From assembly GCA_017459075.1 (NCBI GenBank), contig JAFUDQ010000027.1, forward strand, positions 1 through 35,796: 35,796 bases of DNA. The letters run 5' to 3'. Positions 3,736-18,262 of this stretch are shown here, one piece after another (position 1 is the first letter of the stretch; every line of letters starts with the position of its first letter). The notes below the pieces were generated by a model that ran no database searches, was not told the origin of the DNA, and was given only the letters and a program-made list of their open reading frames with translations. Source of the DNA: Bacteroidales bacterium. GTDB lineage: Bacteria > Bacteroidota > Bacteroidia > Bacteroidales > UBA932. Both the position numbers and the translations under genes were made by a program.

Positions 3736-4260
3736 TTATTGGCATAGGTAACCGGTCAATTGTTGATTTTTTTTTCGCCTTATCTCATCAAAGAAGCGTG
3801 TCTCGGTTTCTTCAATGATATCCAGATAAATGTTAAGCCTCTGAGCAAAAGACCCCAAACACGTTTCAATTGCATTCAACTGAATAATGGCTCTATTTGC
3901 CGGATTACCATCAATATGGATTATGGCCATCGCCGTGTCAAGAGAAACGGACTGTGCCACCTCCTGAAGGTCGGTTGTATTATGCTGATGTTCCTTCAAG
4001 GAGGTTTGCTTAATAACAACAAGGATAGGCAGTTTGGACGCATTAATGGTATACTCCTTACCCTGGTAATCAAAAACGATCCATGGCCCCACTACAGAAG
4101 ATAACAACCCGTTCCTCTGGAGCAGAGCTACTATCGACTTTGAATTCAATGGCGCCTGATAGTTGGCCACGGCTTTCCTATATCTATGATTGAATACGAT
4201 CACAGCTATGATGACAACTGCGGAGAGCAACAGCGTATTAAGTACAGTGGCTTCTATCAT
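3736..4260 (-). CDS. Membrane-anchored hypothetical protein, paralogue A (174 aa)
   Basis: An N-terminal hydrophobic segment (about residues 5-23, LNTLLLSAVVIIAVIVF) is followed by basic residues (NHRYRKAV), which predicts the soluble domain in the cytoplasm by the positive-inside rule. The domain is homologous to that of the protein at 775-1392: both share G-x-x-Y-x-I-x-A-x-x-x-P-x-L-V-x-x-K-Q and the downstream helices. Its ATG overlaps the stop of the preceding 56-codon gene by one base (TAATG), implying translational coupling. It follows the ClpB-like gene and small basic protein gene, so it belongs to the same transcript. No family name is known to me. Confidence 0.7.
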   Translation of the reverse strand: MIEATVLNTLLLSAVVIIAVIVFNHRYRKAVANYQAPLNSKSIVALLQRNGLLSSVVGPWIVFDYQGKEYTINASKLPILVVIKQTSLKEHQHNTTDLQEVAQSVSLDTAMAIIHIDGNPANRAIIQLNAIETCLGSFAQRLNIYLDIIEETETRFFDEIRRKKNQQLTGYLCQ

Positions 4261-4430
4261 TATTCAATAACCTTCTTAATCCCTTTGACAATTGTTCTAC
4301 CTATTTTCTTTTCCAGACCTTGTTTGGTTGTAGGTATCCCTGTCGCCTTGGCGATTTTGCGCTTAAGGACATCAATACCTATCGCCCTGCTGGGTGAGAA
4401 AGAAGTTCCGGGTAATCCTAATATCTTCAT
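4260..4430 (-). CDS. Small basic hypothetical protein (56 aa)
   Basis: The frame starts MKILGLPGTSFSPSRAIGID and continues with a Lys/Arg-rich helix including KRKIAKATGIPTTKQG and ends KKVIE. It begins 5 bases after the stop of the ClpB-like gene and its stop overlaps the next start (TAATG), so its place in the operon is exact. The motif G-T-S-F-S-x-S-R-A-x-G-I followed by KIAKATGIPTTKxG looks like a conserved small-protein signature rather than random coding, but I cannot name a family. The strong positive charge is compatible with nucleic-acid binding or with being a short partner of the unfoldase; both are guesses. Confidence 0.65.
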   Translation of the reverse strand: MKILGLPGTSFSPSRAIGIDVLKRKIAKATGIPTTKQGLEKKIGRTIVKGIKKVIE

Positions 4431-4435
4431 CTTTG

Positions 4436-7018
4436 CTATATGTTTTTGAAAACCAATGCGTGCCCGTTTGACGTCACTTGAATCTTCTGATCTCTGTCCA
4501 GTTCCTTGTTAAGTACCTTAAGAGTCAACTCGTTGACGAATAGGTTATTGATGGCCCTTTTGACCGGCCGCGCTCCATATTCCGGAACATAGCCTCTCTC
4601 GGCCAGGAAATCAATCGCCCTGTCATCGAACTCGATGTTAAGTCCGTTCTTCCTAAGTTTAATGCACATCCTGGCCACTTGTAACCGGACGATCTTTTCA
4701 ATCTCTTCTTTTCCAAGAGGCAAAAACATAACTATTTCATCAATGCGATTGATGAATTCAGGAGCCACCTTCTCTCTCATCATTTGGAGGACACGGTTCT
4801 TCGCATTAACAACGTCATTCTCTGTGTGTCCACCTTCAATCAATGTTTGGGTTATAGCGCTGGCCCCCATATTTGATGTCATGATGATGATGGTGTTCTT
4901 GAAATCAACAACACGCCCCTGACCATCGGTCATACGCCCATCGTCCAAGACCTGCAAAAGGGTCTCAAACACCTTCGGGTGTGCTTTCTCAATCTCGTCC
5001 AGCAGGATGACACTGTATGGCTTCCGGCGTACAGCCTCGGTCAACTGCCCGCCCTGGTCGTATCCAACGTATCCGGGAGGCGCACCGAACAGTCTGCTTA
5101 CACTGAACTCCTGTTGATATTCACTCATATCAATCCTCACGAGCATGTCACGACTGTTGAAGAGGTAGTCCGCAAGGACTTTCGCGAGTTCGGTCTTGCC
5201 GACACCAGTGGTGCCAAGGAAGAGGAATGAACCAATAGGCTTCCCCTCTTCTCCAAAGCCCATCCTGTTGCGTCGTACCACTCGTGATACCGAAGCAATT
5301 GCAGCATTTTGCCCGATTACGGCCTGCTTGAGAATTCCTTCAAGATGCAAAAGTTTCTCGGACTCGTCCTCACTGAGCTTGTTGACAGGAATTCCAGTCC
5401 ACGCCTGGATTACTTCCCTCACGTCATCTTCATTCAGGGAAGACTTTAAGAGGGCAGACTCGGAATGGTTGATCTCGTCAAGAATCGCATCTATCTCGCC
5501 ATTCAGAGAGTCAATCTCTCCGCGCAGGGAGACTGCTGCTTCATACTGGCCAGACCTTTCAGCTTGTTCGAAATTGGTCTTAGTTCTTTCGAGGGCATTT
5601 CTCTTCGATTGAAGGTCCTCAAACCGCCTTCTCTCATTCTGCCACTTGGCGTTGAGATCGTTTTCCTTTTCTCGCAAATTGGCAATTTCCGCATCCAATT
5701 CACTCAGGTCATGAGGCTCCTCGTCCTGGCGCAGTGATTCACGTTCCATCTCTTTTGAACGGATTTGAGCGGATAACTCATCCAGTTCGACAGGGACAGA
5801 AGAACGCTCGATGCGCATCTTTGCCGCCGCTTCATCAATCAGGTCGATAGCTTTATCAGGCAGGTATCTGTCTGAGATATAACGCTGTGAAAGTTTTACC
5901 GCAGATACAATAGCTTCATCCAGAATCTTTATCCGGTGGAAGGCTTCGAAACGCGACTTGATCCCGCGCATGATAGTTATGGCGTCTTCCGTGTCAGGTT
6001 CTTCGACGTATATCCTTTGAAAACGCCGCTCGAAGGCCTTATCACTCTCTACGAATTTGGTGCACTCCTCGATCGTAGTGGCTCCAATAACTTTAATCTC
6101 GCCCCGGGCGAGTTCCGGTTTCAGAATATTTGCAGCATTCAAAGAGCCACCGGCTCCGATAAGCAAATGCATTTCGTCAACGAAAAGGACAATGTTCGGG
6201 TCGCTTTTCACATCCCGGATTACCTTCTTCAGGCGTTCTTCGAACTCGCCGTGTTGGCTTGTCCCGGCAATAAGGGCAGAGATATCAAGTGAGTATAGTT
6301 TGAGTCCGGCCAATTCTTGCGGGACATCGCCTCTGACAAGGCGATGCGCCAGCCCTTCAACAATCGCAGTCTTTCCAGTTCCGGGAGCGCCAACCAGCAT
6401 CGGATTGTTTTTTGTCTTCCGCGAAAGGATCTGCAGGATTCTGCGAACTTCGTCATCGCGCCCAATAGCAGGCTCGATTTTACCCTCCTCGGCAAGGATA
6501 ATCATGTTCTGAGCATACTTGTTCAACGCTCGCAGACTTGACCGCTCCCTTTCCTGGTGTTGTTCTTCATGGGTGATATTGCCGTTTCTGAAGGCAACGA
6601 CAGCCTCCTGGGTTCGCGTCCTTGTGATTCCAAAAGACGCCATAATGTCTCTAACCGCCCCTGAGGTCTCGACAAAGCCCCAAAAGATATGCTCCAGCGC
6701 TACGACAGAAGAACCGTTCTCAGAAGCAATGGATAAAGAGTTCATCAAGATTCTCTTAACATTGTCCGAGAAATCCGGGTGCTCATTCGATGAGTGATGT
6801 AATGACCTCATCGAGTCACTGATCGCCTGGCAGAATGCGGTTTTGTCCACTCCCATCTCCTGAAGAAGGAAAAACACCATGTCTTTACCTTCCTGGATCA
6901 ATGAGACCATCATTACCTGGTCTTCCACCTGGGAGTAATGACAGGAGACTGTCAGTTGATACGCACCGCTGATAGTGGTACGTGCTTTCTCTGTGAATCT
7001 GGAATAATCTATCTGCAT
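4436..7018 (-). CDS. ClpB-like double AAA+ unfoldase/disaggregase
   Basis: I place the start at 7018 (MQIDYSRFTEKARTTISGAY, 860 aa), 4 bases after the stop of the upstream gene; a start 14 codons earlier would overlap that gene. Domains: a divergent Clp N domain (1-140); NBD1 with Walker A GAPGTGKT (210-217), Walker B LFVDE (278-282) and an arginine-finger region FERRFQ (329-334); a coiled-coil middle domain (about 405-525) of ClpB type; NBD2 with Walker A GTTGVGKT (602-609), Walker B ILLDEIEKAH (671-680) and pore loop GYVGYDQGG (649-657). No ClpP-binding IGF/IGL loop is seen, which favours a ClpB-type over a ClpA/C-type role. The NBD1 pore loop reads GTSQHGEFEERLK where housekeeping ClpB has a tyrosine (KYRGEFEERLK). 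ClpB threads proteins through its ring; here it is in an operon with E1, E2 and JAB homologues, so it may act on tagged proteins (inference). Confidence 0.93.
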   Translation of the reverse strand: MQIDYSRFTEKARTTISGAYQLTVSCHYSQVEDQVMMVSLIQEGKDMVFFLLQEMGVDKTAFCQAISDSMRSLHHSSNEHPDFSDNVKRILMNSLSIASENGSSVVALEHIFWGFVETSGAVRDIMASFGITRTRTQEAVVAFRNGNITHEEQHQERERSSLRALNKYAQNMIILAEEGKIEPAIGRDDEVRRILQILSRKTKNNPMLVGAPGTGKTAIVEGLAHRLVRGDVPQELAGLKLYSLDISALIAGTSQHGEFEERLKKVIRDVKSDPNIVLFVDEMHLLIGAGGSLNAANILKPELARGEIKVIGATTIEECTKFVESDKAFERRFQRIYVEEPDTEDAITIMRGIKSRFEAFHRIKILDEAIVSAVKLSQRYISDRYLPDKAIDLIDEAAAKMRIERSSVPVELDELSAQIRSKEMERESLRQDEEPHDLSELDAEIANLREKENDLNAKWQNERRRFEDLQSKRNALERTKTNFEQAERSGQYEAAVSLRGEIDSLNGEIDAILDEINHSESALLKSSLNEDDVREVIQAWTGIPVNKLSEDESEKLLHLEGILKQAVIGQNAAIASVSRVVRRNRMGFGEEGKPIGSFLFLGTTGVGKTELAKVLADYLFNSRDMLVRIDMSEYQQEFSVSRLFGAPPGYVGYDQGGQLTEAVRRKPYSVILLDEIEKAHPKVFETLLQVLDDGRMTDGQGRVVDFKNTIIIMTSNMGASAITQTLIEGGHTENDVVNAKNRVLQMMREKVAPEFINRIDEIVMFLPLGKEEIEKIVRLQVARMCIKLRKNGLNIEFDDRAIDFLAERGYVPEYGARPVKRAINNLFVNELTLKVLNKELDRDQKIQVTSNGHALVFKNI

Positions 7019-7022: not shown

Positions 7023-7259
7023 TCAATTGAATAAAGAACATATAGCTGCCAAGCCTCCAAGGATTGCCCAGTAGAGCAGGAGTTTTCCCACCAATTTCAG
7101 GCATCCGCCAGCAACGCTTTCTGTTGTATTGGCTGTATTTGTAGTTGTACGTGTAGTTTGAGGGTATGTGGTGCGTCCGTAAATCTCCTTCTGGGGCTCT
7201 TTTTTAGATTCCGGGGAGCCAATGAACTCCCCGGTCTTTTCATCGTACCTGTAGGCCAT
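7023..7259 (-). CDS. Small C-terminally membrane-anchored protein (78 aa)
   Basis: The protein begins MAYRYDEKTGEFIGSPESKK, has a Thr/Asn-rich linker (TTRTTTNTANTTES) and ends in one hydrophobic segment (about residues 60-76, LLLYWAILGGLAAICSLF). It looks like a tail-anchored or single-span protein with a short cytosolic N-terminus. It lies 3 bases after the E1-like gene and 4 bases before the ClpB-like gene, so it is translated in step with them. The N-terminal YDxxTGEFxxxP motif recurs near residue 29 of the E1-like protein (YDSASGEFRTVP). It could tether the system to the membrane or be a conjugation target; it has no C-terminal Gly-Gly. No family recognised. Confidence 0.65.
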   Translation of the reverse strand: MAYRYDEKTGEFIGSPESKKEPQKEIYGRTTYPQTTRTTTNTANTTESVAGGCLKLVGKLLLYWAILGGLAAICSLFN

Positions 7260-7262: not shown

Positions 7263-8711
7263 CTACAAGTCAAGGTTGACGTTTGCTCCTAATTCTCGGA
7301 GTTCGTCCAGAGAATCATCAAGAGCCAAGTTGCCTGAGCAAATTGGGCAGTGCTCATCCTTGTTTACCTTGACCCCGTACCATCGGAGAATGGAAGGAAG
7401 CGGTCCTGCTGCCGGGAAAGGCTTCCAGTTGGCATAGTGACGATCCCTCCGGTTTGCCCAGAGATAGCAATCGTAGGTTAGTTCCTCTTCAAGTGAAGAG
7501 ATTCCAGACTCTTTTCCTCTTGAAAGCTCGACCAAAGCGAGTTTTACCATCAGATTGCAGATGGGCTCAATATCAGAAGACAAACCGACTTGGACCATCG
7601 CTTCTGCATCTTCGGCAGATACATACGCCGCAATTCTCCCATCACGCCTGGCGGATGCAACATCAGATATCTCCTCCTCCTGAAGGTTACCGGCTCCGAC
7701 AATGCAGCAGTAACAAGGGCCGCCTGGGCGGTAGCGGAATACATCGCCACCTTCCGCACGGGTTATGGCTCTTCCGAAAATGCCGACCTTGCCTTTTTCG
7801 ACCAACGCACCGGAAATGTTGAAGCGACTGGTGTTGTTGTCCGTCGCGCAGATGACGAGGTCCGCTTTCTCAACCTCCTCATAAAGAAGAGGAAGGTCCT
7901 CATTGATGTTGACCGGGAACTTATCCACCTTTGCATAAGGATTCTTTCCGAGAATTGCCTCTTCAATGACATTGGTCTTGAGACGGCCCAAATCGTGAAT
8001 CGTGGCCGTGTGACGCGACAGGTTGTGCAGTTCGACGCGGTCGAAATCCATCAATGCGAAATGTCCGACACCGGCCTTGGCCAACTCGATTGAGATCTGG
8101 GAGCCGAAACTGCCAAGTCCGATGACAAGCACCCTCTTATCGCGAAGGATATCGACCTCAAGGATTCCTTTGGAACGAGAGAAAAGATTCTCTTCTGAAG
8201 GGACAATGAACGCCTCTGCTTTTTTCCATTGCCGGGCCGGCAACTGATGCAGTCGATACCAGACCTCTGGCCCCTCTTCTGTCAGAAGGATACAGAAGCG
8301 CATGTTCGTGTGATTCTGATCGTTGATAGCACTGCTGTCACGTGTGTAGAATCCGGGGAGACGGAGTTCATTCGGTAGTTTTTTGATTTCAGGGTGAAGA
8401 TGAATGTGAAACACCTCATCCGAGTCAATTTCTTCCACATAGGCAGGGACTTCTTCCGCAGAGCCGAGAGCTTCTTCTGCGCTCTTCAGTTCATCCTCCC
8501 TGAGGTAGACCATCACACGGCCGCTTTCTGAAGCGAAGCCGCCCTCCGTGAACTTCGTAACGGTTTCTCCATTGGACGGACTGTATCCTCTGGGGACTGT
8601 ACGGAACTCGCCTGAGGCGGAGTCGTACACCAAGTCCGTACCCGATGTCGCAGGGTTATAACCTTCTTCCCGGATGTTTTCTGCTAGATTGTTAAGTTGA
8701 TTCTCGTTCAT
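7263..8711 (-). CDS. E1/ThiF-like adenylyltransferase with extra N-terminal domain
   Basis: The 482-residue protein has a ThiF/MoeB/E1 Rossmann domain from about residue 185: nucleotide loop GLGSFG (198-203), DFDRVELHNLSRH (222-234) with the Asp and Arg expected to contact ATP, K245, and ATDNNTSR with D291. A zinc site is formed by CYCC (333-336) and CPIC (455-458), as in MoeB. Family members adenylate the C-terminus of a ubiquitin-like protein. The first ~185 residues are not a known catalytic unit to me; they contain YDSASGEFRTVP (29-40) and HIHLHP (102-107). The catalytic cysteine of true E1s is not obvious. It lies 33 bases after the E2-like gene, in line with E1-E2-JAB clusters known in bacteria (CBASS type II, Bil, Bub and related clusters), but the neighbours here differ. 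Confidence 0.92.
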   Translation of the reverse strand: MNENQLNNLAENIREEGYNPATSGTDLVYDSASGEFRTVPRGYSPSNGETVTKFTEGGFASESGRVMVYLREDELKSAEEALGSAEEVPAYVEEIDSDEVFHIHLHPEIKKLPNELRLPGFYTRDSSAINDQNHTNMRFCILLTEEGPEVWYRLHQLPARQWKKAEAFIVPSEENLFSRSKGILEVDILRDKRVLVIGLGSFGSQISIELAKAGVGHFALMDFDRVELHNLSRHTATIHDLGRLKTNVIEEAILGKNPYAKVDKFPVNINEDLPLLYEEVEKADLVICATDNNTSRFNISGALVEKGKVGIFGRAITRAEGGDVFRYRPGGPCYCCIVGAGNLQEEEISDVASARRDGRIAAYVSAEDAEAMVQVGLSSDIEPICNLMVKLALVELSRGKESGISSLEEELTYDCYLWANRRDRHYANWKPFPAAGPLPSILRWYGVKVNKDEHCPICSGNLALDDSLDELRELGANVNLDL

Positions 8712-8744: not shown

Positions 8745-9170
8745 TTATGCCTGGTGATTTAAATAGTATTGTATTTCTTTCCCAGTACGAAGGTGTGCTT
8801 CGTACATCTCCAACCAAAGGCGGCATTTGATGAACACCTTGTAAAGGGAGACATTCGGCGTCCATGAACTGTAACCATAGTGGCAGATTCTTGTCCAGCC
8901 GTGCTCGCTGTCCAGGGTATGCATAGATGCGCTGCACCCTCTCATCTCAAGCCCGCTCTTTGTCTTCAGCATCCGAGTGACAAACACCTTGGGTATTGAC
9001 ATCGGGAACTGGGACAGGTCAAAGTGCAGTGTATACAGGTTCCCGCTGTTTGTGCGGGCAGCCATCTTGAGGCTGGGCGAAGAAGTGCCAATCCCCTCAA
9101 AACAGTACCAGGAATTAGGGAGTTTCCTTCTGAGAACACCAAGTTCTGCCTGATATCGTGCGTTGTCCAT
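8745..9170 (-). CDS. E2-like (UBC-fold) ubiquitin-conjugating enzyme homologue
   Basis: I use the ATG at 9170 (141 aa, MDNARYQAELGVLRR...), five bases after the JAB gene stop; the longer frame from 9233 would run back into JAB. The sequence follows the UBC pattern: the strand region YTLHFDLSQFPMSIPKVFVT (46-65), H84 where eukaryotic E2s have the HPN His, then RICHYGYSSWTPNVSLYKVF (94-113), matching G-x-I-C-x(6-8)-W-x-P-x-x-x-L of E2 enzymes. C96 is therefore the candidate thioester cysteine. The helix after it (FIKCRLWLEMYEAH) fits the E2 C-terminal helix. It probably receives a modifier from the E1-like protein encoded next. Overall similarity is weak, so the call rests on motif order and on the neighbours. 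Confidence 0.82.
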   Translation of the reverse strand: MDNARYQAELGVLRRKLPNSWYCFEGIGTSSPSLKMAARTNSGNLYTLHFDLSQFPMSIPKVFVTRMLKTKSGLEMRGCSASMHTLDSEHGWTRICHYGYSSWTPNVSLYKVFIKCRLWLEMYEAHLRTGKEIQYYLNHQA

Positions 9171-9175: not shown

Positions 9176-10189
9176 CTAAAGGTTTGAATAGTAACGAACA
9201 AATGATTTCAGAATATCTCCGGAGTAGATCCACTCTACGGGATTCATCAAGACTACCTCTTCATCGAGCCACCTGCTCACGACAGGTCTTCTCTCCGGGA
9301 AACCCATCGGGAAAAGAATGTCTTCCGACCAAGCTTTTCCACGTCGGTTGACGCCATGGCTATAGATATGTACCCTGGATTCCGGGTCAAGTTTGATATC
9401 CGTCTCAATGTCGGCTCCATTTCGTCCTTGAAGGTATGTAAGGATGTCTTTCAAAGCCCGATTATTTGCTTTTTCTTCCAGCCAATAGCCTGTCTTATAC
9501 GCAGGCTTTGATGGACTTACGTTATTCAGGTTCGAATCACGATGACTGGCGGCCAGCGTTCTGGGCATAACGAGATCCTCCGCCATCAGTCTGTCAGCAG
9601 GACGCCTGACTGGACTGTCAGCAAAGATTACATCCCAATGGCCAGCGATATAGCCGCGGTTGTTGCAAGGGAAAGGATTTAGTGTAGTGCTCCTGCCGTC
9701 GCAGTTTCCAATACAAAGCAGAAAGCGGCCAAGACCTTTCTCGCGGATAGTATTAATCATGGTAGAGGCATCATGACCACTGGGGCGAGCAAGTCCCAGC
9801 TGATGATGGGAATGCCACTCCCCAATATGATGGAGCCCGAAGTAATCCTTCAGTTTTGCCCCGATTTTGGTGAGGTACTCGATATCCTGGTTAAAAAATG
9901 CAACCTGGTGATTAGCATTTCTACCCGGGCCGATTGCATACAGTACTACCGGAGTACCGGATTCTGTGTAGAAGCCAAATAGCTGTCCACCGGTCTCTAT
10001 AGAAGGATAATCAAGAATACACTTGGATATGAAATCAATCTCGCTCTTGAAGATGATTGCCTTTCCATTACCCGTGTGCTCTTCGCAGGCGGGGACGGTG
10101 TATCTGGGCTGGGCAGATGCCCCGGCCATGATGGATTGGAATCTCTTTGTGTACTGGAGGTGTTTCCTCCTGAATCTGTTCTTTGCCAT
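9176..10189 (-). CDS. JAB/JAMM (Mov34/MPN-like) metalloprotease, putative deconjugase
   Basis: I choose the ATG at 10189 (MAKNRFRRKHLQYTKRF, 337 aa); an ATG at 10129 (MAGASAQPRY) is possible, and the frame also runs up to 10240. The JAMM zinc-protease motif is clear: the acidic residue in ETGGQLFGF (E65) and EWHSHHQLGLARPSGHD with H126, H128, S137 and D140. Spacing is HxHx(11)D, one residue more than the usual HxHx(10)D. JAMM enzymes cleave isopeptide bonds or process ubiquitin-like precursors. About 140 residues after the domain are unexplained; they include ILFPMGFPERRPVV, faintly like a UBC beta-hairpin. Upstream its 5' end overlaps a frameshifted coiled-coil frame; downstream the E2-like gene starts five bases after its stop. 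Confidence 0.9.
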   Translation of the reverse strand: MAKNRFRRKHLQYTKRFQSIMAGASAQPRYTVPACEEHTGNGKAIIFKSEIDFISKCILDYPSIETGGQLFGFYTESGTPVVLYAIGPGRNANHQVAFFNQDIEYLTKIGAKLKDYFGLHHIGEWHSHHQLGLARPSGHDASTMINTIREKGLGRFLLCIGNCDGRSTTLNPFPCNNRGYIAGHWDVIFADSPVRRPADRLMAEDLVMPRTLAASHRDSNLNNVSPSKPAYKTGYWLEEKANNRALKDILTYLQGRNGADIETDIKLDPESRVHIYSHGVNRRGKAWSEDILFPMGFPERRPVVSRWLDEEVVLMNPVEWIYSGDILKSFVRYYSNL

Positions 10190-10477
10190 TGTGGCTTGAC
10201 TCAGACAACTGAGCGAACAACTGATTAGCTTTAGCCTCAAGCGAAGCTGTTAAGCCAGAAGCTTCTTCTCCTAACGATGCCCGCTGGCTCTGGAGATCCG
10301 AAATTATAGCTTGAATGCCTCCTTTAATAGAATCTAGAGACTGGGTGTAGTCATTAATCTGTTTTGCAGTATGTCGTATGCATCTACAGTCTGTTTGACT
10401 TGATTCTTTGCTGACTCAATCTCTTTGAGGCTAGTTTCAAGCTTTGCCAATGAGGTTAAAAGTTCACTTGCTTCCAT
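10068..10477 (-). pseudogene. Coiled-coil protein gene with an apparent one-base frameshift
   Basis: From the ATG at 10477, 15 bases after the helicase stop, one frame reads MEASELLTSLAKLETSLKEI and on through VDAYDILQ, then leaves into a stop near 10340. A different frame carries on with QINDYTQSLDSIKGGIQAII, SDLQSQRASLGEEASGLTAS and LEAKANQLFAQLSES. Adding one base at the T4 run at 10362-10365 (A4 on the coding strand) joins them into a continuous heptad-like coiled coil of 136 aa ending at TAA 10068. The final ~35 residues overlap the JAB start and look like off-frame translation, so the true end may differ. The same composition on both sides of the break argues that the intact gene existed. 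It could be a real mutation, an assembly indel, or (less likely) a programmed shift; no canonical slippery heptamer is present. Confidence 0.6.
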
Positions 10478-10492: not shown

Positions 10493-13400
10493 TTATTTCG
10501 TTAAGTACTTGTCTTTGAAATTATTCAACCATGCGGAATGAATACCAAGTTCGCATTGCATGTCCCAAATGCGCATTTGTTCTATTTCTTCATCGGTAGC
10601 TGCGTTTCTATTATTAATGATGAAGGCCTGTTTGAATTCTTCCATCTTCTGATAGAACTCTTCTTTTTTTGCTGTTTGTTTGTAGAACTCCATATAACCC
10701 CTCAGGTAGCTATTTCGCAGTTCTTCCTGAAGATTCTTGTTTTGGCCGACTTTGAGGTATGTAAGACAGAAGACATTTAACAAATCCAAAGATGGATTCG
10801 GATCGGCTAAGGCCCTCCTAATCAAACGTACAGCACCTTGCAAATGTTTGATGTTATCTTTAGGTGAGCTCGTTCCCACCACATCATCATCTATAACCCT
10901 CATATACTTGAAAAGGATGTCAAACGATGAAACTTTACCTTCATCAGTATCGTCAGTGAGGGAAAAATCCAGACCACTCTCCGTCTGGTATTCCTTGCGA
11001 GCGAATTTGGAGTTGAAATAGTAGTAGATGAAATCCTTGAGGGCCTCATTGGCCTCTTTCCAGTTATCTCCATAGTTCACGCCTTCCATACAGAAGGTAC
11101 GTATGTCATCAATAGCTTGTTTCCGCTTGACGGCGATCTTTTCGTAGATAAACTCGGTTAGATAACCAAGGCATTTTTGGACCTCATTATCACCTTTATA
11201 ACCAGGGACTTTAGCTATCTCTTGCGCAGCCCTTTCTTTGGTGTAATACCGTTCCAGGAATGTCTGTAACGCCCGATAATAAGCTCCGTCCTTTTTTCTC
11301 TTCGCTACTACTCGATACACACGATTTCCATAATCTTCAGTAAAATCATCAATTAGGCCGATGCAACACATCCTATAGATAGCCTTGGCGATGTCACTCT
11401 TGTCCCTTAGTATCTCTAACCTATCTTTATTGGTATTGTAAGTTATACCCGTCTCTATATTCCGGATATGCATGATATCGCCTTCCTTTCCTGTTACATA
11501 AACTCTTTCTCTCCTTCCACCATTATCGTAAAGCCATATTGGAATTGATGAAATAAGAGCGACAACTTCAGTTCCTTCCTCAGAATCAAGAACTTTTTGT
11601 AAGAAATCAGAAACTTGAACGGTGTCTTTTAACTCAGCGTCATCACCATAGAAAATCTGAGTCTTGGAACGGCTAAGCAGCTCAAACATGGTCCGCTTCT
11701 CAATCAGAGTACCCTTAAAATTATTGTTGTAGAAATACATTACTGTCTCATAATCTACATTTTGGTACTCAAAAGCCCTTGCCGGAATGGTTAAATTATT
11801 CTGCCGAAGCAGTTCGTCCATATCCTTTTTATAGACAAAGCCACAACCAACATCCGGGATCATCCTCAAGTGGCACCTGTTGTATTCTGAGCAAGGACCA
11901 ACGCATGGGCCTTTATTGCATTTCTGGCAGTCTTTATCGCATAGGCGAAAAGCAAAGCGGGTATTGCATACATCACAGTGGAGTTTGACCATGTCCTTCT
12001 CGGGTGTGCAATAGTCAAAATATTGCTCATCTATATTAAGTCCATAGTGGTCAAGTATCATCTGCAAATCACCGTCATAGAACCATTTGTCCCGAATAAT
12101 GAACATGGGGAAATCACTGACAGGGCATTTGCGATTGATGCGAACAAGTTTATAATCAGCCAGAAGAATGCAAGAAAGGGCCATTTTTCTGTCACGGCCC
12201 GCACGACCGGCTTCCTGGACAAAGCTTTCCAATGAACTGGAATAGTTCATGTTAACGGTAAACCGAACATTAGGCTTGTCAATGCCCATACCAAATGCTT
12301 TGGTTGCCACCATCAAAGGAAGCTTATTATCCCTAAACAGATCAAGATTCTTGAAAGACTCCTCATCTATGGCATCGGCATCATCACCGTCACCACTCCC
12401 CATGAAGGTGCCCAGTTTATGAATGGTGTGCCCAAGAGAGTCTTTATTTCCGTTTACCGATATTCCGGTGCTGTTTTTATGAGGACAAAAAACAATTCCG
12501 GACTGTGCATATTCATCGGAATCCTCAAAGAACTTTTCTGGTAGTTCTACAGACAAGTCTATTTCAATACTCCCTTCAAGATTCTGCCGTTCGTTGAATC
12601 TTTCCTTTATGTGCTTGATTGAATCAGGTGTCTGCAATTCCTCAATATAACCAGGAATTCTTTCAAGATACTCTGTCAAGAAATCTTGTTTTGAAGGATA
12701 TACACTCCATTTATCCGTCATCTTCACAGCCTTTGGCAATCCTTCATCCAAGACATGGTTCTTGTCAAAGTATTTGTCTTCTTCACATTGAACAGGAACC
12801 CTCTCTATTTTATACTGTAATTCGAGACGGTTCGTGTTCTCTTCACGGATAATGGTGTCAGAATCAAGTTCAAAAGCTCCATCGCCAGAAAGTTCGCGCT
12901 CGACGTCTGCCAGCACGTCAAAAGAAGCTGTTGCTGTCAGGCCGAAAAGTGTCAAGCGCTTATCTTCTCCTTTTTGTTTTGGCAGTACATACTGGTATAG
13001 ATTACGTCCAAGATGCAGGTAAGTAAAGCGGAAATCATGTCCCCATTCAGAAACGCAGTGTACTTCGTCAATGACGCCATAGCTGAAGTACACGCCGACA
13101 TTATGCATATTCCTCAACTTTTCACGGAAACTATAGGTACAGAGCCTCTCAGGAGAAAGGAATACAAACTGAACCATAGAAGTTTCCATCATCTTTGCCC
13201 GCTTATCTTTTTCGTGGGCATCAACTGTTGAGTTTATGTATGTACAGGCATCAATACCGGACTTAACCAAGCCATCATACTGATCCGCCATGAGAGATCT
13301 GAGCGGGTCAACCACTAGGGTGACACCAGGTTGAAGCATGGCCGCTAACTGGTAAGTAAGGGACTTACCTCCGCCGGTCGGAAGCAGGCCGATAACGCTC

Positions 13401-15643
13401 TTGTTTTGAAGGGCTCGGCTCAAAATAGGAAGCTGGCCTGGTCTGAAGTCTACTTTGCGGAAAAGTAACTGAAGGAAATATTGTAATTCTTCTTTCCTCG
13501 CATTGATAGGAATATAGTTACCTTGAGGATCTCTGTTTACTAACGGCTGATAGGTAATGCTGTCGGAGGTATAAATATGTCTCTCAGAATTGATATAGTT
13601 GGCGGAGCGAATGAAGAAATAACACTTTTCGCCGCATTTGAAACTGCTGAAAGACCGGTCTTCCAATCCGGAGCGGCGCATGACAGCTATATCAAAAACG
13701 ACATCGTATTGCTTGGCGTGGTTCGCCTTTTCGATACCGTTGATGACGTTAACCTGGATAGACTCATCATTACTGCCAGCCATATGGAGAGGAGAATCCA
13801 CGAAGGCTGGAGAGCTGATGACATCGAGTTGTATTTTTGGGAAATAAATGTCTTTGTATCCTTCGCTTAATGAAGCAAGCCTGTTGAATGAATAGGTGAA
13901 ATCTCTCAAGGCAAGAGCCACACATGGGACATCACGTTCCAGGGCGAGAATTCTCAGGGTATCTTTCTTATAATCCACCCGACCGGTAATCAGCGCCTCA
14001 ATAAGAGTTTTTTGAATACGGGCTATCCCAATAGGAGACAGTGTGAGTTGTAATGCCTTGGTCCAGGATGCATCATACTTCTTTTCCCATGCCTCCTTGA
14101 CCTTTGCGAAGAACTCATTGTTCAGGGGATCTGAATCCGGGGCAAAGCCATTGATGTCCCTTATTCGAAGACAATCCCAGCCTTTACCCTTCAGGGCAGA
14201 GGCCCGGAAATCGTCTGATGTCCTTGTCCTGTTATCGCTGTGATAATTCGGCCCATCTATCTCTATGACAAGACCGTGCTTTTCGCTTCCATCCCGGCCG
14301 ATTAGCGGATAAGGGTATTCGCAGGCAAAATCGACGCGCTGGGAGTGATGCGCGCGCTGGCCTGTAATAGACATCAAGCTCCTTTGCGGCATGAGAACCT
14401 GACGGAGTTCTACAGGTGCTGAACTGAATATGAACTGCTTCTCAAAGTCGCTTTCAAGAGTTTTCGAGCAGTAGGTTTTTTCATCCAGTGTAAGACGTCC
14501 ATCGATTGCATATAAGGCCAACAAGACGTCATTAAGATTCAATCCTTCGGCATCATAGTTCAAACTACCAAGGCTATCTGATAGCTTCTGGTTTCCCAAC
14601 GGCCTGAAAGCATCCTCAATGGTGGGGCTAGTTCTGGTTGGAAGACCCCTTGTTACAATATTATTAAGTACGGCAAGAATCGGGTCTACATCATCGTAGA
14701 TGCTGGCGCCAATATCAAAGGGAGCCGCAACATCGAATCCAGATAGTCTCTGAAAGAGAGCAGCTATCTTCTTTTTGGCATCATCATCTGCCTTCTGTAT
14801 CAGATTCCTGACAGCATCTAACTGATATGCTGCAAAGAACTGGGCATCAGGATAGTAATCGACGGCAATGAGGTTGATCTGATTGTTCTCGAGCTTGAAT
14901 ACTTTGATGTTGTAGGAGCAGGGCTTGGAGTCCTCTGAATAGCGATACTCAGAGACAGTTTCATTAATGAAGGTCTCCGGAGCATTGAAATACTCATAGA
15001 AACGGTCAATTCTTCTGTTGCCACTGTTCATTGGACTTATACAGAAGAAGTAGTGTTGGCCCAGAACATTTGAGCCGACCTTTTCTGCCAAGGACTTCAG
15101 ATCAATTGAGCCAATGTCGAGAATGTTTGAAAAGAAGTGGATGGTGACAGGGCTGTCGCCAGAGATGTCTCCCGGTTTTACTTCGTCCAGATACTTTCCT
15201 ATACAGGATACCGTTACGTTGGAGCCTACGTATGCACCAACATGTACCGCAGCTCGCTCCCGAGCGGCATCAGAGGGCTCAATTAAAGTAATCTTGTGAA
15301 CTCTGTTCGTGATACGGCGGTCCCGGAGGTAGTCAAAAAAGCAGACTGTGGCCAGACCTTGGCCGCACCCCCAGTCAACTATATCAAAGCCTCCAGAAGC
15401 ATATGTAGAAGGATTGATGCAAGAAAGCGCCCGATAAACTTTTGCTTGGTGCATCCTGCCAAATGAGAACAGGTAGCACTTCATTTGAGCGTCGGAGTTC
15501 AATAAGTCAACTCCGTGATTCAAGGACTCATATAACTCATTCCTTTCCTCATCGGAAAGGGTCATTATATAGTTCTTGGCAATGCCTCTGATACTATTGA
15601 AAGAGACTTCGCGCAGCGCAGATATTTCGTCTTTGTATGCCAT
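10493..15643 (-). CDS. Methyltransferase-like / DUF559-Vsr-like nuclease / RecQ-type helicase fusion (1716 aa)
   Basis: Domains in order: (a) residues ~55-260, a class I SAM-binding-like fold with FDIVDWGCGQGLA (86-98) as motif I and LIEP (120-123) as the acidic motif II end; (b) ~395-500, a restriction-endonuclease-like domain of DUF559/Vsr type with E401, VDFA (D438), VIEIDGPNYH (E461, D463) and a final GWDCLRIRD; (c) ~725-1175, a RecQ-type SF2 helicase with Walker A LLPTGGGKS (754-762), box DEVH (860-863), TATAS (904-908), a long insert, then ATKAFGMGIDKPNVRF (1114-1129) and QEAGRAGRDR (1144-1153); (d) a cysteine cluster (1224-1258) as in RecQ zinc domains; (e) a helical ~450-residue tail. 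Such helicase-nuclease fusions are typical of phage-defence and DNA-restriction loci. It starts one base after the DUF1848 gene stop and precedes the coiled-coil/JAB/E2/E1 genes. Confidence 0.92.
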   Translation of the reverse strand: MAYKDEISALREVSFNSIRGIAKNYIMTLSDEERNELYESLNHGVDLLNSDAQMKCYLFSFGRMHQAKVYRALSCINPSTYASGGFDIVDWGCGQGLATVCFFDYLRDRRITNRVHKITLIEPSDAARERAAVHVGAYVGSNVTVSCIGKYLDEVKPGDISGDSPVTIHFFSNILDIGSIDLKSLAEKVGSNVLGQHYFFCISPMNSGNRRIDRFYEYFNAPETFINETVSEYRYSEDSKPCSYNIKVFKLENNQINLIAVDYYPDAQFFAAYQLDAVRNLIQKADDDAKKKIAALFQRLSGFDVAAPFDIGASIYDDVDPILAVLNNIVTRGLPTRTSPTIEDAFRPLGNQKLSDSLGSLNYDAEGLNLNDVLLALYAIDGRLTLDEKTYCSKTLESDFEKQFIFSSAPVELRQVLMPQRSLMSITGQRAHHSQRVDFACEYPYPLIGRDGSEKHGLVIEIDGPNYHSDNRTRTSDDFRASALKGKGWDCLRIRDINGFAPDSDPLNNEFFAKVKEAWEKKYDASWTKALQLTLSPIGIARIQKTLIEALITGRVDYKKDTLRILALERDVPCVALALRDFTYSFNRLASLSEGYKDIYFPKIQLDVISSPAFVDSPLHMAGSNDESIQVNVINGIEKANHAKQYDVVFDIAVMRRSGLEDRSFSSFKCGEKCYFFIRSANYINSERHIYTSDSITYQPLVNRDPQGNYIPINARKEELQYFLQLLFRKVDFRPGQLPILSRALQNKSVIGLLPTGGGKSLTYQLAAMLQPGVTLVVDPLRSLMADQYDGLVKSGIDACTYINSTVDAHEKDKRAKMMETSMVQFVFLSPERLCTYSFREKLRNMHNVGVYFSYGVIDEVHCVSEWGHDFRFTYLHLGRNLYQYVLPKQKGEDKRLTLFGLTATASFDVLADVERELSGDGAFELDSDTIIREENTNRLELQYKIERVPVQCEEDKYFDKNHVLDEGLPKAVKMTDKWSVYPSKQDFLTEYLERIPGYIEELQTPDSIKHIKERFNERQNLEGSIEIDLSVELPEKFFEDSDEYAQSGIVFCPHKNSTGISVNGNKDSLGHTIHKLGTFMGSGDGDDADAIDEESFKNLDLFRDNKLPLMVATKAFGMGIDKPNVRFTVNMNYSSSLESFVQEAGRAGRDRKMALSCILLADYKLVRINRKCPVSDFPMFIIRDKWFYDGDLQMILDHYGLNIDEQYFDYCTPEKDMVKLHCDVCNTRFAFRLCDKDCQKCNKGPCVGPCSEYNRCHLRMIPDVGCGFVYKKDMDELLRQNNLTIPARAFEYQNVDYETVMYFYNNNFKGTLIEKRTMFELLSRSKTQIFYGDDAELKDTVQVSDFLQKVLDSEEGTEVVALISSIPIWLYDNGGRRERVYVTGKEGDIMHIRNIETGITYNTNKDRLEILRDKSDIAKAIYRMCCIGLIDDFTEDYGNRVYRVVAKRKKDGAYYRALQTFLERYYTKERAAQEIAKVPGYKGDNEVQKCLGYLTEFIYEKIAVKRKQAIDDIRTFCMEGVNYGDNWKEANEALKDFIYYYFNSKFARKEYQTESGLDFSLTDDTDEGKVSSFDILFKYMRVIDDDVVGTSSPKDNIKHLQGAVRLIRRALADPNPSLDLLNVFCLTYLKVGQNKNLQEELRNSYLRGYMEFYKQTAKKEEFYQKMEEFKQAFIINNRNAATDEEIEQMRIWDMQCELGIHSAWLNNFKDKYLTK

Positions 15644-15644: not shown

Positions 15645-16706
15645 CTATTTCCCCGTAATAGTATCTGAATCAGGATTGTTCTTGTGCATCTGCCAGTTCC
15701 TTATAGCGGCTTCCTTGGAGCTATTGGCATAGCAATATTCGCAGAGGTGGGGACAGGTGTTGTATTCGCCAATGTCTTTGCTGATGATGCATCCGCAGAA
15801 CTGGCGCTGTCCTTTGTCCTTGTTGTTTTTCTTTTTAACGGCATAGTGACCTTCATCTATGACGATAGCATCTTCCGGTATGGAATCTTCTCCGAACAGA
15901 CCGTATTCTTTTTCGTGAATCTCCACACCGAGGAATTTCATTAGGACGGGGTCATTCCATGCGATTCGAATCATTAAGTCATCATCTACGCAACGATTAT
16001 GGGCTATGCCGTATTTGTCAAGGTCTATCTTCTCCCCGCAAGTGGCAATGGTGAAACCCCATTTCTTGTTGAGATGACTAAGGCGAGCAGCGAACTCGTC
16101 CATTTCTGGGATGGACCACTCTCGGTAGTTTATGTGTGAGGCTTCCAGATTTGCTTTGACTTTCTTGTAGGCAAGGATGTCGGCGAAACTGAAAACCAGT
16201 TTCTCCGTGTAGCCAACGAGCTGATCAGCGATGCCTTCAATCTTTTTCAGTAGAAGTTCTATATCGATGGTGTCCGTAAGGAGCAGCGGATCGAAACGCC
16301 AGATGACGTGCCCTTTGCCCAACTTATCCACCAGCGCCTTGAATGTCTGTATACGTTCAGAAATCTTCGGAACGCCCTTCTCCAGATGCTCATCGTCATA
16401 GTCGTTCAGCGTATACTGAATATAGCAGTTTATACCTCGTTCTTTTAGGTAGTCCAGATGAGGAATAAGCTTTTCGGGATTCTTGGACCAGAATACAATG
16501 AAGCGTGTCTTTCCATAAGAGACATAGCTTTTAACGCCGTTGAACGGATTTGTCCATGCGGAATAGCCCTTCTTGAGTCTGGCGAAGAACCAGTCGGCGT
16601 AGAAGGAAGGAATGTCGGTGCTGCGGCTGGCGGAGATAATTTCCGGAGCCTGTGCGTCAGCGTACATTCCGTTGTCAAGTTGTATTCTGTCTTTTCCCCA
16701 AGCCAT
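15645..16706 (-). CDS. DUF1848 family protein (cysteine-cluster, radical-SAM-like)
   Basis: The 353-residue protein starts MAWGKDRIQLDNGMYADAQA and has the DUF1848 hallmark ISASRSTDIPSFYADWFFAR near residue 24, FIVFWSKNPEKLIPHLDYLK near 68, and a C-terminal cysteine cluster: CGC (304-306), then CPHLCEYCYAN (C318, C322, C325). The pattern suggests an iron-sulfur cluster; the family's reaction is not established to my knowledge. DUF1848 proteins occur both alone and in accessory regions. It sits one base before the helicase fusion start and 5 bases after the UvrD-like gene, so it is cotranscribed with the conjugation genes. Possible roles (nucleic-acid or peptide modification) cannot be decided from sequence. 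Confidence 0.88.
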   Translation of the reverse strand: MAWGKDRIQLDNGMYADAQAPEIISASRSTDIPSFYADWFFARLKKGYSAWTNPFNGVKSYVSYGKTRFIVFWSKNPEKLIPHLDYLKERGINCYIQYTLNDYDDEHLEKGVPKISERIQTFKALVDKLGKGHVIWRFDPLLLTDTIDIELLLKKIEGIADQLVGYTEKLVFSFADILAYKKVKANLEASHINYREWSIPEMDEFAARLSHLNKKWGFTIATCGEKIDLDKYGIAHNRCVDDDLMIRIAWNDPVLMKFLGVEIHEKEYGLFGEDSIPEDAIVIDEGHYAVKKKNNKDKGQRQFCGCIISKDIGEYNTCPHLCEYCYANSSKEAAIRNWQMHKNNPDSDTITGK

Positions 16707-16711: not shown

Positions 16712-18049
16712 TCAGTGTTCTTTGTTTAAGACATTCTTTTCATAGTATTCCCGCGTCATGAAGCCGTCGCAGCCGGTTTTGTCGGCTTTGAAGTTGGTGC
16801 AGCCGAGGAAGGGTTCCACTTTGCCTTCCTTCACAATCAGGTAGCCGTCTTGGCATTTGTCGCACTTGAGGATGGACATGTTGCCGCCACGGAGGTCGTT
16901 GGTCATGAAGTCGCAGATTTCGGGCTCGTTGGAGCAGATCCAGAGCTTGAGGCCGATGTGGGGCTTGTAGCGGAGCTGCAGAGGGTAGCCGCAGACCGGG
17001 CAGCGCTTGATGTTATTCAGGTTGTCAGCGGACTGGTCATTGAGCTGACCGTCCATGGTGACTAAAGGATAGTCACGGAGAAGTTCGGTGACGAACTGAG
17101 AGGGGTGCTGCTCGGGGGTGATAATGTACACGCGGTTCTTGGTGCGCGTGAGTGCAACGTAAAAGAGGCGGCGCTCTTCGGCGTAGTCAATCTTGTTGAG
17201 ATACAAGAAGTTTGCAATCTTTACTTCCTGCGCTGAGCGAAGCGCCTCGTGGGCAATAGAAATGCGGTTGCCGGTGCGCTTGTTGATGATTTCCTCCGTG
17301 TATTCGCTCATATTCCCCTTGAGCGTGGTGAGGTCCGCCTTGGAGATATAGTTGAAGAAAGAATTGAGGTCATCGCCCTCGTATGGCGCGTCAAAGTAGC
17401 TGCCGAAGAAGAGGATCAGTTTGTCCACCAATTCTGGTTGCTCCAGAATATTGCTCTTGAGATAGTTATTGACGATGTTGAAGAGGAAGCCTCCGTCCCT
17501 GATATTCTTCCCGGCCGGATCTTGCTTCCGGAGGATAGCATAGCCAGTACTGTGGAAGGTGGTGACCTGGCACTTTATCTTGAGAGCCTTGTTAATCTTG
17601 TCCCTCAGCTCGCCAACCGCTTTGTTGGTGAACGAAATCACCAGAATCTTCTCCGACTCTAGATGCCGCTGAATGAATGTTTGATTATGCTGTCGAATAC
17701 AGTTCGCGCCAGAAGCAAGATTGGCTATATCAGTATAGTTCCGCAGAAATGCCTCTACTTCAGCCCCAGGCACACCATTGGCCGAGCAATAGTAGCCTAG
17801 TGTCTTCGCTGTCTTCTGATTCTGGAAGAAGTTGTTTAGTTCAGCATAATCCTCCACCAGCCGCCTGTAATCACTCCTGGCCAGGAACTTGTCTGACATC
17901 AGAAGGCTGTTTAGGGTTTGGGTAAATTGCTTCAACTTGGCATATTCTTGAGTAGGAGTAATAGGCGCGGCATTCACGGGCTCTTTCGGTTCAGGAGTCT
18001 GATGTGATTTGCTACGCTTATTGAAGAATATGCGGTTTAAGAAGGACAT
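16712..18049 (-). CDS. UvrD/Rep-like (helicase IV type) protein lacking Walker A and B, with zinc-ribbon tail
   Basis: The frame is intact (445 aa) but the helicase core is not. Residues ~1-133 match the N-terminal part of UvrD-type helicases found in Bacteroidetes. HLESEK (129-134) is then joined directly to ILVISFTNKAVGELRDKI (motif Ia, 135-152), so the Q motif and the Walker A GxGKT expected between them are absent. TTFHSTGYAIL (163-173) is present. At residue ~289, IDY is joined to AEERRLFYVALTRTKNRVYI (motif VI), so Walker B, motif III (GD..Q) and motifs IV-V are missing. The C-terminus has topoisomerase-type zinc ribbons: CPVC/CSNEPEIC and CDKC/CTNFKADKTGC. An active ATPase is ruled out. 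Either this is a decaying helicase with in-frame losses or a repurposed DNA-binding scaffold; a collapsed assembly is also possible. Confidence 0.85.
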   Translation of the reverse strand: MSFLNRIFFNKRSKSHQTPEPKEPVNAAPITPTQEYAKLKQFTQTLNSLLMSDKFLARSDYRRLVEDYAELNNFFQNQKTAKTLGYYCSANGVPGAEVEAFLRNYTDIANLASGANCIRQHNQTFIQRHLESEKILVISFTNKAVGELRDKINKALKIKCQVTTFHSTGYAILRKQDPAGKNIRDGGFLFNIVNNYLKSNILEQPELVDKLILFFGSYFDAPYEGDDLNSFFNYISKADLTTLKGNMSEYTEEIINKRTGNRISIAHEALRSAQEVKIANFLYLNKIDYAEERRLFYVALTRTKNRVYIITPEQHPSQFVTELLRDYPLVTMDGQLNDQSADNLNNIKRCPVCGYPLQLRYKPHIGLKLWICSNEPEICDFMTNDLRGGNMSILKCDKCQDGYLIVKEGKVEPFLGCTNFKADKTGCDGFMTREYYEKNVLNKEH

Positions 18050-18050
18050 G

Positions 18051-18262
18051 CTATATTATGCCAATTTCACCAATCTCTTTCATGATGCGATTCGTCTGCT
18101 CCATGGCGTAGATGATGTTGTTGTGATGCTTAATTCTGCGAATTCCAGCTTCTGCCCCTTTTGGCCTTTAAACCATTTCTGAGCATGGCAGTTTGCATGT
18201 AGGCGCGCAACACCTGTCTGGTGCTGCTGGTTGATTGAAAAGAAGCTTTCTTTCAAATCCAT
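18051..18262 (-). pseudogene. Small gene at the head of the island operon, with an apparent one-base frameshift
   Basis: From ATG 18262 the frame reads MDLKESFFSINQQHQTGVAR, LHANCHAQKWFKGQKGQKLE and then drifts to a stop at 18080. Restoring one base around 18147-18152 (TTCGC to TTCCGC on the coding strand) gives KLEFRRIKHHNNIIYAMEQT, then NRIMKEIGEIGII and a TAG at 18051-18053, one base before the next gene start. The restored 70-aa protein ends exactly where the tight operon spacing predicts. A stop codon nine codons upstream shows that this ATG is a real start or the first available one. The sequence vaguely resembles C-terminal tails of large DNA methyltransferases, which I cannot verify. 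Confidence 0.55.

What the first reader, a model, noticed from the sequence alone, without database searches (positions are those of the whole stretch)
4258..18262. Apparent operon joining E1, E2 and JAB homologues to a helicase-nuclease fusion and a ClpB-like unfoldase
Seen: about 14 kb of minus-strand genes with gaps of 1-33 bases. The order is DUF1848, methyltransferase/nuclease/RecQ fusion, coiled-coil, JAB, E2-like, E1-like, membrane-anchored small protein, ClpB-like, small basic protein, membrane protein. Known: bacterial E1-E2-JAB clusters exist (CBASS type II, Bil, Bub and related), several of them antiviral. I do not know of one that carries a RecQ-type nuclease fusion plus a ClpB-type AAA+ protein. 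Inference: DNA sensing/processing by the helicase may be coupled to protein tagging and unfolding, giving a composite defence system.
Basis: partly seen in the sequence, partly recalled or inferred. Interest (0 to 1): 0.92.

Follow-up and report, generated by a model that had tools for sequence, protein, structure and literature searches.

The report
Ubiquitin-like pathway with tiny tag
A gut-type bacterium carries a set of genes that looks like a miniature ubiquitin system: it seems to use a very small, non-ubiquitin protein as its tag and comes with its own specialised protein-unfolding machine, while the DNA helicase next to it is an unrelated neighbour.

Summary
The JAB, E2, E1 and ClpB-like genes are real and form a recurrent cassette. 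The RecQ fusion does not belong to it: homology to the nearest relative (L020) begins at window base 10191, the JAB start, with no RecQ block in the 8.5 kb held upstream there, and the fusion's own relatives have no E1/E2.

It is seen in 21 of 22 close relatives (the other contig starts inside E1) and in both loci found later by E2 alone. In the window it is fused to E1. It has a helix, a hairpin and a probably flexible tail ending G-[FYW]-A in 15 of 21 aligned copies, and is as constrained as E2 in the one pair compared.

I read it as the conjugated tag: JAB trims it, E1 activates it, E2 attaches it. A private ClpB branch, which has lost the D1 pore-loop Tyr/Phe in 11 of 11 copies, probably handles tagged proteins. 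Conjugation is inferred, not shown. Defence is plausible (a distant relative lies in a CBASS-like locus) but unproven.

The parts
9176..10189 (-). JAB/JAMM metalloprotease, 337 aa from the ATG at 10189; predicted to trim the tag precursor and remove tag conjugates
   Evidence: PADLOC JAB 3.6e-14; E64, H125-x-H127, S136-x-x-D139 invariant in 21 aligned JABs, numbered without the start Met; homology to L020 starts here
8745..9170 (-). E2-like conjugating enzyme, 141 aa; C96 and H84 invariant
   Evidence: A7, 21 rows; AF2 pLDDT 95.5; Foldseek first 16 places E2 entries, FANCL or Fanconi core complex; PADLOC E2 models, window 0.0027, best member 4.9e-7
8526..8711 (-). tag: E1 residues 1-62, homologous to a free-standing small protein in most relatives; N-terminal helix, beta-hairpin, flexible tail with TEGGFA
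   Evidence: dN/dS 0.016 against L020; AF2: helix 3-15, hairpin 25-30/35-40 at pLDDT about 60, residues 41-62 below 50
7263..8525 (-). E1-like adenylating enzyme (ThiF family), continuous with the tag; the only invariant cysteines are C333, C336, C455, C458
   Evidence: PF00899 1.3e-30; 25-row alignment; Foldseek best 2.3e-15
7023..7259 (-). 78-aa protein: tag-like hairpin YDEKTGEF at the N terminus, hydrophobic C-terminal stretch (by eye)
4436..7018 (-). operon-specific ClpB paralogue, 860 aa; D1 pore-loop Tyr/Phe absent, D2 pore loop kept, no IGF-type ClpP loop in the window copy
   Evidence: TIGR03346 2.5e-301, 1002.1 bits against a cut-off of 1232.1; alignments; tree
4260..4430 (-). 56-aa basic protein; similar ORFs in L020 and L027; accessory
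   Evidence: no Pfam match
3736..4260 (-). 174-aa membrane protein; two similar ORFs in L020; probably accessory
   Evidence: no Pfam match
10191..10477 (-). frameshifted remnant of the coiled-coil gene that follows the RecQ fusion in two relatives; NOT part of the cassette
   Evidence: break in homology to L020 at 10191
10493..15643 (-). 1716-aa methyltransferase-like (by eye)/REase-like/RecQ-type fusion; separate neighbouring cassette
15645..16706 (-). DUF1848 protein, partner of the RecQ fusion
   Evidence: PF08902 3.7e-93; same pairing in L063, not in L064
16712..18049 (-). UvrD-like helicase fragment with zinc ribbons, apparently incomplete; not part of the cassette
   Evidence: Pfam matches to parts of UvrD models only

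Best explanation
JAB-E2-[tag]-E1-[hairpin membrane protein]-ClpB is a bacterial protein-conjugation pathway whose modifier is a roughly 60-residue protein that does not look like ubiquitin. Proposed steps: (1) JAB cuts after the conserved G-[FYW]-[AFY] end, freeing the tag from E1 (fused here), from a second tag (L071) or from a short tail; (2) E1 adenylates the new C terminus; (3) with no other invariant cysteine in E1, the tag goes directly to C96 of E2; (4) E2 attaches it to target proteins, with the membrane protein, whose N terminus imitates the tag hairpin, possibly holding the machine or targets at the membrane; (5) the dedicated ClpB, pulling mainly with its D2 ring and, in the window and most relatives, lacking a ClpP-docking loop, remodels tagged proteins rather than feeding them to ClpP; (6) JAB removes the tag. 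Shown from sequence or models: the enzyme families, gene linkage, tag conservation and fusions, loss of the D1 Tyr/Phe. Inferred: every reaction step, the cut site, ClpB acting on tagged proteins, and the purpose.
For: Tag gene next to or fused to E1 in 21 of 22 close relatives; L070 and L071, fetched by the E2 profile and not in the tag model, both carry it (7.2e-18 and 1.4e-28, L071 as two tandem copies). None of 20 more distant E1 loci (L010, L042-L060) has one below E = 1. It is fused to E1 in two lineages, window/L020 and Spirulina L037. Window-L020 dN/dS: tag 0.016, E2 0.014, rest of E1 0.075 (one pair). C-terminal motif G-[FYW]-A in 15 of 21 rows, the aromatic in all 21. CBASS E1/E2 conjugates a protein without the ubiquitin fold through a C-terminal Gly or Ala, and its JAB cuts at the end of the first copy in a tandem fusion (PMC10097602 passages). 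Catalytic residues invariant in E2 and JAB. ClpB within 4 kb of E1 in 10 of 22 close relatives and another AAA-type gene in 3 (one Pfam-tested). The 11 operon ClpBs form one split against 14 other ClpB/ClpC rows at 100/100; D1 Tyr/Phe absent in 11 of 11 and present in 14 of 14. In a hairpin model built from tags only, the nine best non-tag ORFs of 6,434 were all cassette genes.
Against: No conjugation has been observed. Six of 21 tags lack the G-[FYW]-A end (GFF, PFF, PYY, DYY), and I read of no precedent for a C-terminal F or Y. In the window the tag C terminus is joined to E1, so the model needs a cut that is only assumed. The Bradyrhizobium E1 has a faint tag-like N terminus without the GFA end (E = 0.86), which fits an E1 subunit as well. 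ClpB was not found in 12 of 22 close relatives; 3 of these have another AAA-type gene, 2 contigs end within 1.3 kb of E1, and the rest were not all Pfam-scanned. One operon ClpB (L027) does carry an IGF-containing insertion where ClpC has its ClpP loop, so that copy may work with ClpP. The tag part of the model is low-confidence (only 3 of 25 rows cover it). The hairpin hits outside tags are individually weak (best E = 0.034). The E2 model's match to the bacterial E1-E2-Ubl complex structure is weak (rank 19, E 0.6).
Confidence: 0.5

Rival explanations
1. The small protein is a detachable subunit of E1 (a clamp or scaffold), not the modifier; what is conjugated is something else, such as the membrane protein.
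For: Fused to E1 in two lineages; faint tag-like N terminus without GFA on the Bradyrhizobium E1; the same hairpin heads many of the membrane proteins, which could compete for one site.
Against: Tandem double tag in L071, two tag genes in L028, a C-terminal aromatic motif kept in all 21 aligned copies, and stronger constraint than on the rest of E1 in the one pair compared.
Confidence: 0.2
2. Same machinery, but its purpose is protein quality control or membrane-protein turnover rather than phage defence (concerns purpose, so it overlaps with the best explanation).
For: Four mapped Barnesiella-type loci (L007, L008 = L030, L029, L032) keep it in the same place between genes that look like housekeeping genes by eye (L031 not mapped); L024 adds a Clp_N plus DnaJ-zinc-finger protein; ClpB and a membrane protein are common partners.
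Against: Sporadic presence (5 of 393 genomes in the order; no match in the two other genomes of the genus searched there); neighbours in some relatives are defence-like: CBASS-type genes in L085, an AAA_15 ATPase in L070, a YhcG nuclease in L027, dynamin-like GTPases in L025.
Confidence: 0.35
3. A degenerate or unusual member of a known system (type II CBASS, Bil, Bub or PRTRC) whose usual modifier is lost or lies elsewhere.
For: Nearest plasmid relative is in a CBASS-like locus; E1 and JAB hit PADLOC's E1-E2 and JAB models and, under the cut-off, an NCBIfam anti-phage cap2_3 model; one of 21 E2s hits a BilB model (0.0043); E1 fold matches Cap2 and Bub E1.
Against: SMODS-family CD-NTase in 1 of 24 searched genomes, there on another contig; E2 and E1 are separate genes; E2 keeps its cysteine; no Pfam ubiquitin-fold hit among the ten window proteins scanned; PRTRC_ThiF 21.1 bits against a cut-off of 144.75; tag linkage in 21 of 22.
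Confidence: 0.1
4. One reading: DNA processing by the RecQ fusion coupled to tagging and unfolding in one defence system.
For: Same strand, very short gaps in this one genome.
Against: Fusion not found in the DNA held for any of the 22 close relatives, L020 included; its relatives L063 and L064 have no E1/E2 in the 12-19 kb read; the coiled-coil gene between the two blocks is frameshifted and truncated.
Confidence: 0.04

Closest known systems
Type II CBASS Cap2/Cap3
   Same: E1, E2 and JAB proteins; Foldseek matches Cap2; a protein without the ubiquitin fold is conjugated through C-terminal Gly/Ala (PMC10097602 passages); a distant plasmid relative sits with SMODS (partial), Cap4/SAVED and TIR genes
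   Different: No SMODS CD-NTase beside it; separate E2 and E1 genes; a dedicated small tag; ClpB or AAA partner in many; membrane protein with hairpin
Bil (BilABCD)
   Same: Four roles: modifier, E2, JAB, E1 (PMC11354881 passages)
   Different: BilA has two ubiquitin-like domains and BilD a Cys domain; here a short tag without detected ubiquitin fold and no extra invariant E1 cysteine; the window E2 lacks the C-E-H-H spacing given for BilB
Bub
   Same: E1 match to Citrobacter BubCD
   Different: Recalled: Bub works through oxyesters with a serine protease; here E2 C96 is invariant in 21 of 21 rows and the protease is a JAB
Predicted operon types 6a-6e of Iyer et al. 2006
   Same: Clusters of E1, E2 and JAB (PMC1779556, section 14 read, other passages seen)
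   Different: No ClpB or other AAA+ unfoldase in the five types as described in that section and the table passages (a ClpS in type 4d); modifiers named there are beta-grasp proteins
Pup and ClpB (recalled)
   Same: Small, partly disordered modifier (Pup) and an AAA+ partner; ClpB domain architecture
   Different: Pup uses a different ligase; this ClpB branch has lost the D1 pore-loop Tyr/Phe

Membership tests
E1/E2/JAB conjugation pathways (broad kind) | ThiF-type adenylation domain | tested here: met
   PF00899 1.3e-30; G198, G200, G203, D222, D224, R233, K245, D291 invariant in 25 rows; Foldseek 2.3e-15
E1/E2/JAB conjugation pathways (broad kind) | E2/UBC fold with catalytic cysteine | tested here: met
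   C96 invariant in 21 of 21 rows; fold matches, though none at E 0.001 or below
E1/E2/JAB conjugation pathways (broad kind) | JAMM metal site | tested here: met
   E64, H125, H127, S136, D139 invariant in 21 rows; fold not predicted
E1/E2/JAB conjugation pathways (broad kind) | covalent conjugation activity | not testable with these tools
   needs biochemistry
Type II CBASS | CD-NTase in the operon | tested here: not met
   SMODS family in 1 of 24 genomes, on another contig; L038 not searched, other CD-NTase families not tested
Type II CBASS | Cap2 as one E2-E1 fusion protein | tested here: not met
   separate E2 and E1 genes in the window and in the relatives where both are seen
Bil | BilA modifier with ubiquitin-like domains | tested here: inconclusive
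   no Pfam ubiquitin-like hit among ten window proteins; tag model low-confidence
Bil | E1 with a Cys domain and catalytic cysteine | tested here: not met
   only C333, C336, C455, C458 invariant among 25 rows
Bub | cysteine-free oxyester chemistry (recalled) | tested here: not met
   E2 C96 invariant in 21 of 21; chemistry itself not tested
PRTRC / type 6d | PRTRC ThiF model above cut-off | tested here: not met
   21.1 bits against 144.75
PRTRC / type 6d | E2 without the upstream histidine | tested here: not met
   H84 invariant in 21 rows; its equivalence to the classical histidine is my alignment by eye
Housekeeping ClpB | NCBIfam ClpB equivalog cut-off | tested here: not met
   1002.1 bits against 1232.1
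Housekeeping ClpB | aromatic (Tyr/Phe) in the D1 pore loop | tested here: not met
   Q, Q, M, H, M in five operon copies and a shortened loop in six; Tyr in 9 of 9 other ClpB and Tyr/Phe in 5 of 5 ClpC-like rows; truncated L080 left out
One composite RecQ-E1-ClpB operon | genes co-occur in other genomes | tested here: not met

The most novel reading that the evidence does not exclude
Ubiquitin-type E1, E2 and JAMM enzymes here serve a modifier that is not a ubiquitin fold at all: a helix-hairpin-tail peptide of about 60 residues, made free, in tandem or fused to its own E1, that marks proteins for a private ClpB branch whose single working pore ring makes it resemble the eukaryotic Cdc48/p97 segregase (resemblance recalled). 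That would be ubiquitin signalling without ubiquitin, coupled to its own unfoldase.
Probability: 0.35. Interest if true: 0.9.

Novelty: new variant of a known kind. Interest (0 to 1): 0.7.

Why it matters
Bacterial E1-E2-JAB pathways are thought to resemble the ancestors of ubiquitin signalling. If this cassette conjugates a short non-ubiquitin tag, then the enzymes are separable from the ubiquitin fold, and tagging joined to a dedicated unfoldase arose in bacteria as well. The tag's small size and its free, tandem and fused versions make the idea easy to test. It also shows how a gene run with tiny gaps can hide a boundary between two unrelated systems.

Tried and rejected
Composite RecQ operon: rejected. 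E1 relatives in IMG/VR: 88 pattern matches, none confirmed. PDB-sequence profiles of E2 and JAB gave nothing significant (best 0.12 and 0.13 for E2, both with RWD or UBC-type chains near the top; 0.011 for JAB). The tag profile's best PDB hits (4e-5, 9.3e-4, 0.0018) were three SAKe entries over about 20 residues with no stretch passing alone; I took them as chance. A possible UEV-like C-terminal domain in JAB was not supported (hhalign E 0.039, probability 0.7). The own genome shows no second tag (E up to 5). In one search the row for the basic protein was out of frame and is discarded. The hairpin pattern (15 of 20 chosen genes against 28 of 770) was tuned after seeing the sequences, and the 770 include most of the chosen genes, so it is illustration only; the ranking is the evidence. 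E1 tree: ClpB-bearing E1s cluster (0 of 500 shuffles as low) but are one split in only 6% of bootstrap trees. Rows left out: L022 and L040 from the E2 alignment, L036 and L040 from the JAB alignment (contig or start incomplete or unclear).

Papers: PMC1779556 (passages, section 14 read), PMC10097602 and PMC11354881 (passages); PMC2732565 and 10.1038/s41586-024-07730-4 were not held. Searches, of which I saw listings with starts of abstracts, showed no title or abstract about E1-E2-JAB with ClpB or this tag; that is silence of an open-licence library without bioRxiv, not proof of novelty.
Full report
What is there. The window holds a minus-strand run from a UvrD-like fragment (16712-18049) to a membrane protein (3736-4260). 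Pfam, PADLOC and NCBIfam support DUF1848, a RecQ-type helicase with a nuclease-like region (under its Pfam cut-off), JAB, ThiF/E1 and ClpB. The window E2 has no Pfam match; among the four E2s scanned, RWD and UBC models each match two, weakly (best 0.0058). H84, C96 and W103 are invariant in 21 rows, an arrangement that fits canonical E2 enzymes as I recall them, and the predicted model (pLDDT 95.5) gives 16 first Foldseek places that are all E2-containing entries, FANCL or the Fanconi core complex (a bacterial E1-E2-Ubl complex follows weakly at rank 19). The E1 model (pLDDT 72.4) finds UBA5, ThiF, Cap2, MccB, MoeB and Bub E1.

Two systems, not one. Window and L020 (E1 92% identical) are homologous from 10191, the JAB start, down to 1410 (80.9% DNA identity), with nothing upstream in the 8.5 kb held. 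The RecQ fusion was not found in the DNA held for the 22 close E1 relatives (L026 has an ordinary RecQ about 4.9 kb away). Two of 392 other genomes of the order hold a RecQ-fusion relative at 1e-150: L063 with DUF1848, coiled coil and genes that look like HsdM/HsdS (recalled, not searched), L064 with the coiled coil only; neither stretch has E1/E2. In the window the coiled-coil gene is frameshifted and stops at the junction. The RecQ block is a neighbour.

The real cassette. Five of 393 genomes of the order, the own one and one distant relative included, have an E1 match at 1e-20. A scan of genomes of 84,980 species gave 41 loci; 22 (L020-L041) are close (E 2e-80 or better), mostly Bacteroidales, with a Fibrobacter, a Flavobacteriia bacterium and two cyanobacteria. 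JAB and E2 accompany E1 in all but L036 (partial E2) and L040, whose contigs start too late. Between E2 and E1 lies a reading frame of 56-96 aa (162 aa in L023, which holds extra sequence); it is fused to E1 in the window, L020 and Spirulina. I call it the tag. The window copy has no Pfam match and the two free copies scanned have no NCBIfam match. Searching 395 genomes of the phylum with E2 gave two genomes besides the own one; both loci carry the tag, L071 as a tandem pair in 160 aa. Twenty distant E1 loci do not, at E below 1.

Tag features. Helix, a hairpin around [YF][DN]xxTGEF, and a tail ending G-[FYW]-A in 15 of 21 rows, GFF in 2, PFF in 1, PYY in 2, DYY in 1. Three end exactly there (L022, L034, L027); the others have tails, or run into E1 or a second tag. 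In the E1 model the tag shows helix 3-15 and hairpin 25-30/35-40 at pLDDT about 60 and an unstructured tail (3 of 25 rows cover it). Against L020 its dN/dS is 0.016, like E2 (0.014) and below the rest of E1 (0.075), JAB (0.092) and the membrane protein (0.22); ClpB has 0.034.

Partners. ClpB lies within 4 kb downstream of E1 in 10 of 22 relatives plus the window, usually next or next but one, in L024 after several genes. In L035, L036 and L038 a 552-553 aa gene follows instead; the L035 copy is an AAA ATPase (1.4e-21), the other two were matched by length and ends only. The 11 operon ClpBs form one split (100/100) against 14 other ClpB/ClpC rows from nine genomes. In all 11 the D1 pore-loop Tyr/Phe is gone (Q, Q, M, H, M, or a shortened loop in six) while the 14 keep it; all 11 keep the D2 loop; 10 of 11 have no IGF-type ClpP loop, L027 has IGF in an insertion there (loop meanings recalled). 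A similar D1/D2 asymmetry is recalled for p97. Many of the membrane proteins begin with a hairpin like the tag's: in a model built from tags, the nine best non-tag ORFs of 6,434 were all from these cassettes, each weak alone (best E 0.034).

Mechanism. E1 has no invariant cysteine beyond two CxxC pairs, which by recalled ThiF structure bind zinc; so I infer direct transfer to E2 C96. CBASS gives the precedent for a non-ubiquitin protein conjugated through Gly or Ala and for JAB cutting tandem fusions (PMC10097602 passages). The nearest plasmid relative, on a conjugative Bradyrhizobium plasmid (E1 40.7% identical over 60%), lies with SMODS (partial), Cap4/SAVED and TIR genes; its E1 has only a faint tag-like N terminus (E 0.86). 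One idea is that the CD-NTase end and the small tag are alternative conjugated ends for one enzyme set. No SMODS gene adjoins the tag-bearing loci searched.

Purpose. Sporadic spread and defence-like neighbours in some relatives favour defence; stable placement in the four mapped Barnesiella-type loci and the DnaJ-finger protein in L024 favour quality control. I cannot decide.

Verdict. A new variant of a known kind, with a bold reading that simple biochemistry can test.

Noticed in passing
window 10493-18049: A separate cassette: UvrD-like fragment, DUF1848, a 1716-aa nuclease-like/RecQ fusion and a decayed coiled-coil gene; relatives L063 (beside genes that look like type I restriction) and L064. 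PADLOC links DUF1848 and the UvrD piece to models named for reverse-transcriptase defence.
   Followed up: partly
window 775-4260: A 685-aa protein with a retropepsin-like DTG motif (recalled) lies between similar-looking membrane proteins of 205 and 174 aa; L020 has a like arrangement with an extra 343-aa gene.
   Followed up: no
L071, reverse complement 9406-10782: Two E2 genes in a row followed by a 160-aa tandem double tag with near-identical repeats.
   Followed up: partly
L085 5981-12351: Bradyrhizobium conjugative plasmid: JAB, E2, E1, partial SMODS CD-NTase ending FGA, Cap4/SAVED nuclease, TIR; E2 and E1 as separate genes in a CBASS-like locus.
   Followed up: partly
L024 11602-14468: Clp_N fused to a DnaJ zinc-finger domain, and a second Clp_N protein with a tag-like C terminus (E 0.019), inside the cassette.
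   Followed up: no
L027 11260-13929: The ClpB copy of L027 has an insertion with IGF where ClpC carries its ClpP loop, unlike the other ten operon ClpBs.
   Followed up: no
L025 11848-17541: Large genes follow E1 in the Fibrobacter locus; of two scanned, one is a dynamin-family GTPase (2.5e-19) and one hits Dynamin_N under the cut-off.
   Followed up: no
L070 406-2479: An AAA_15 ATPase (1.3e-22) and a 230-aa protein without Pfam match follow E1, recalling PtuAB (Septu); not tested further.
   Followed up: no
L086 584-1732: An E1-like gene (35.6% over 46% of the query) on a 10-kb unverified phage scaffold from human faeces, without a detected tag.
   Followed up: no
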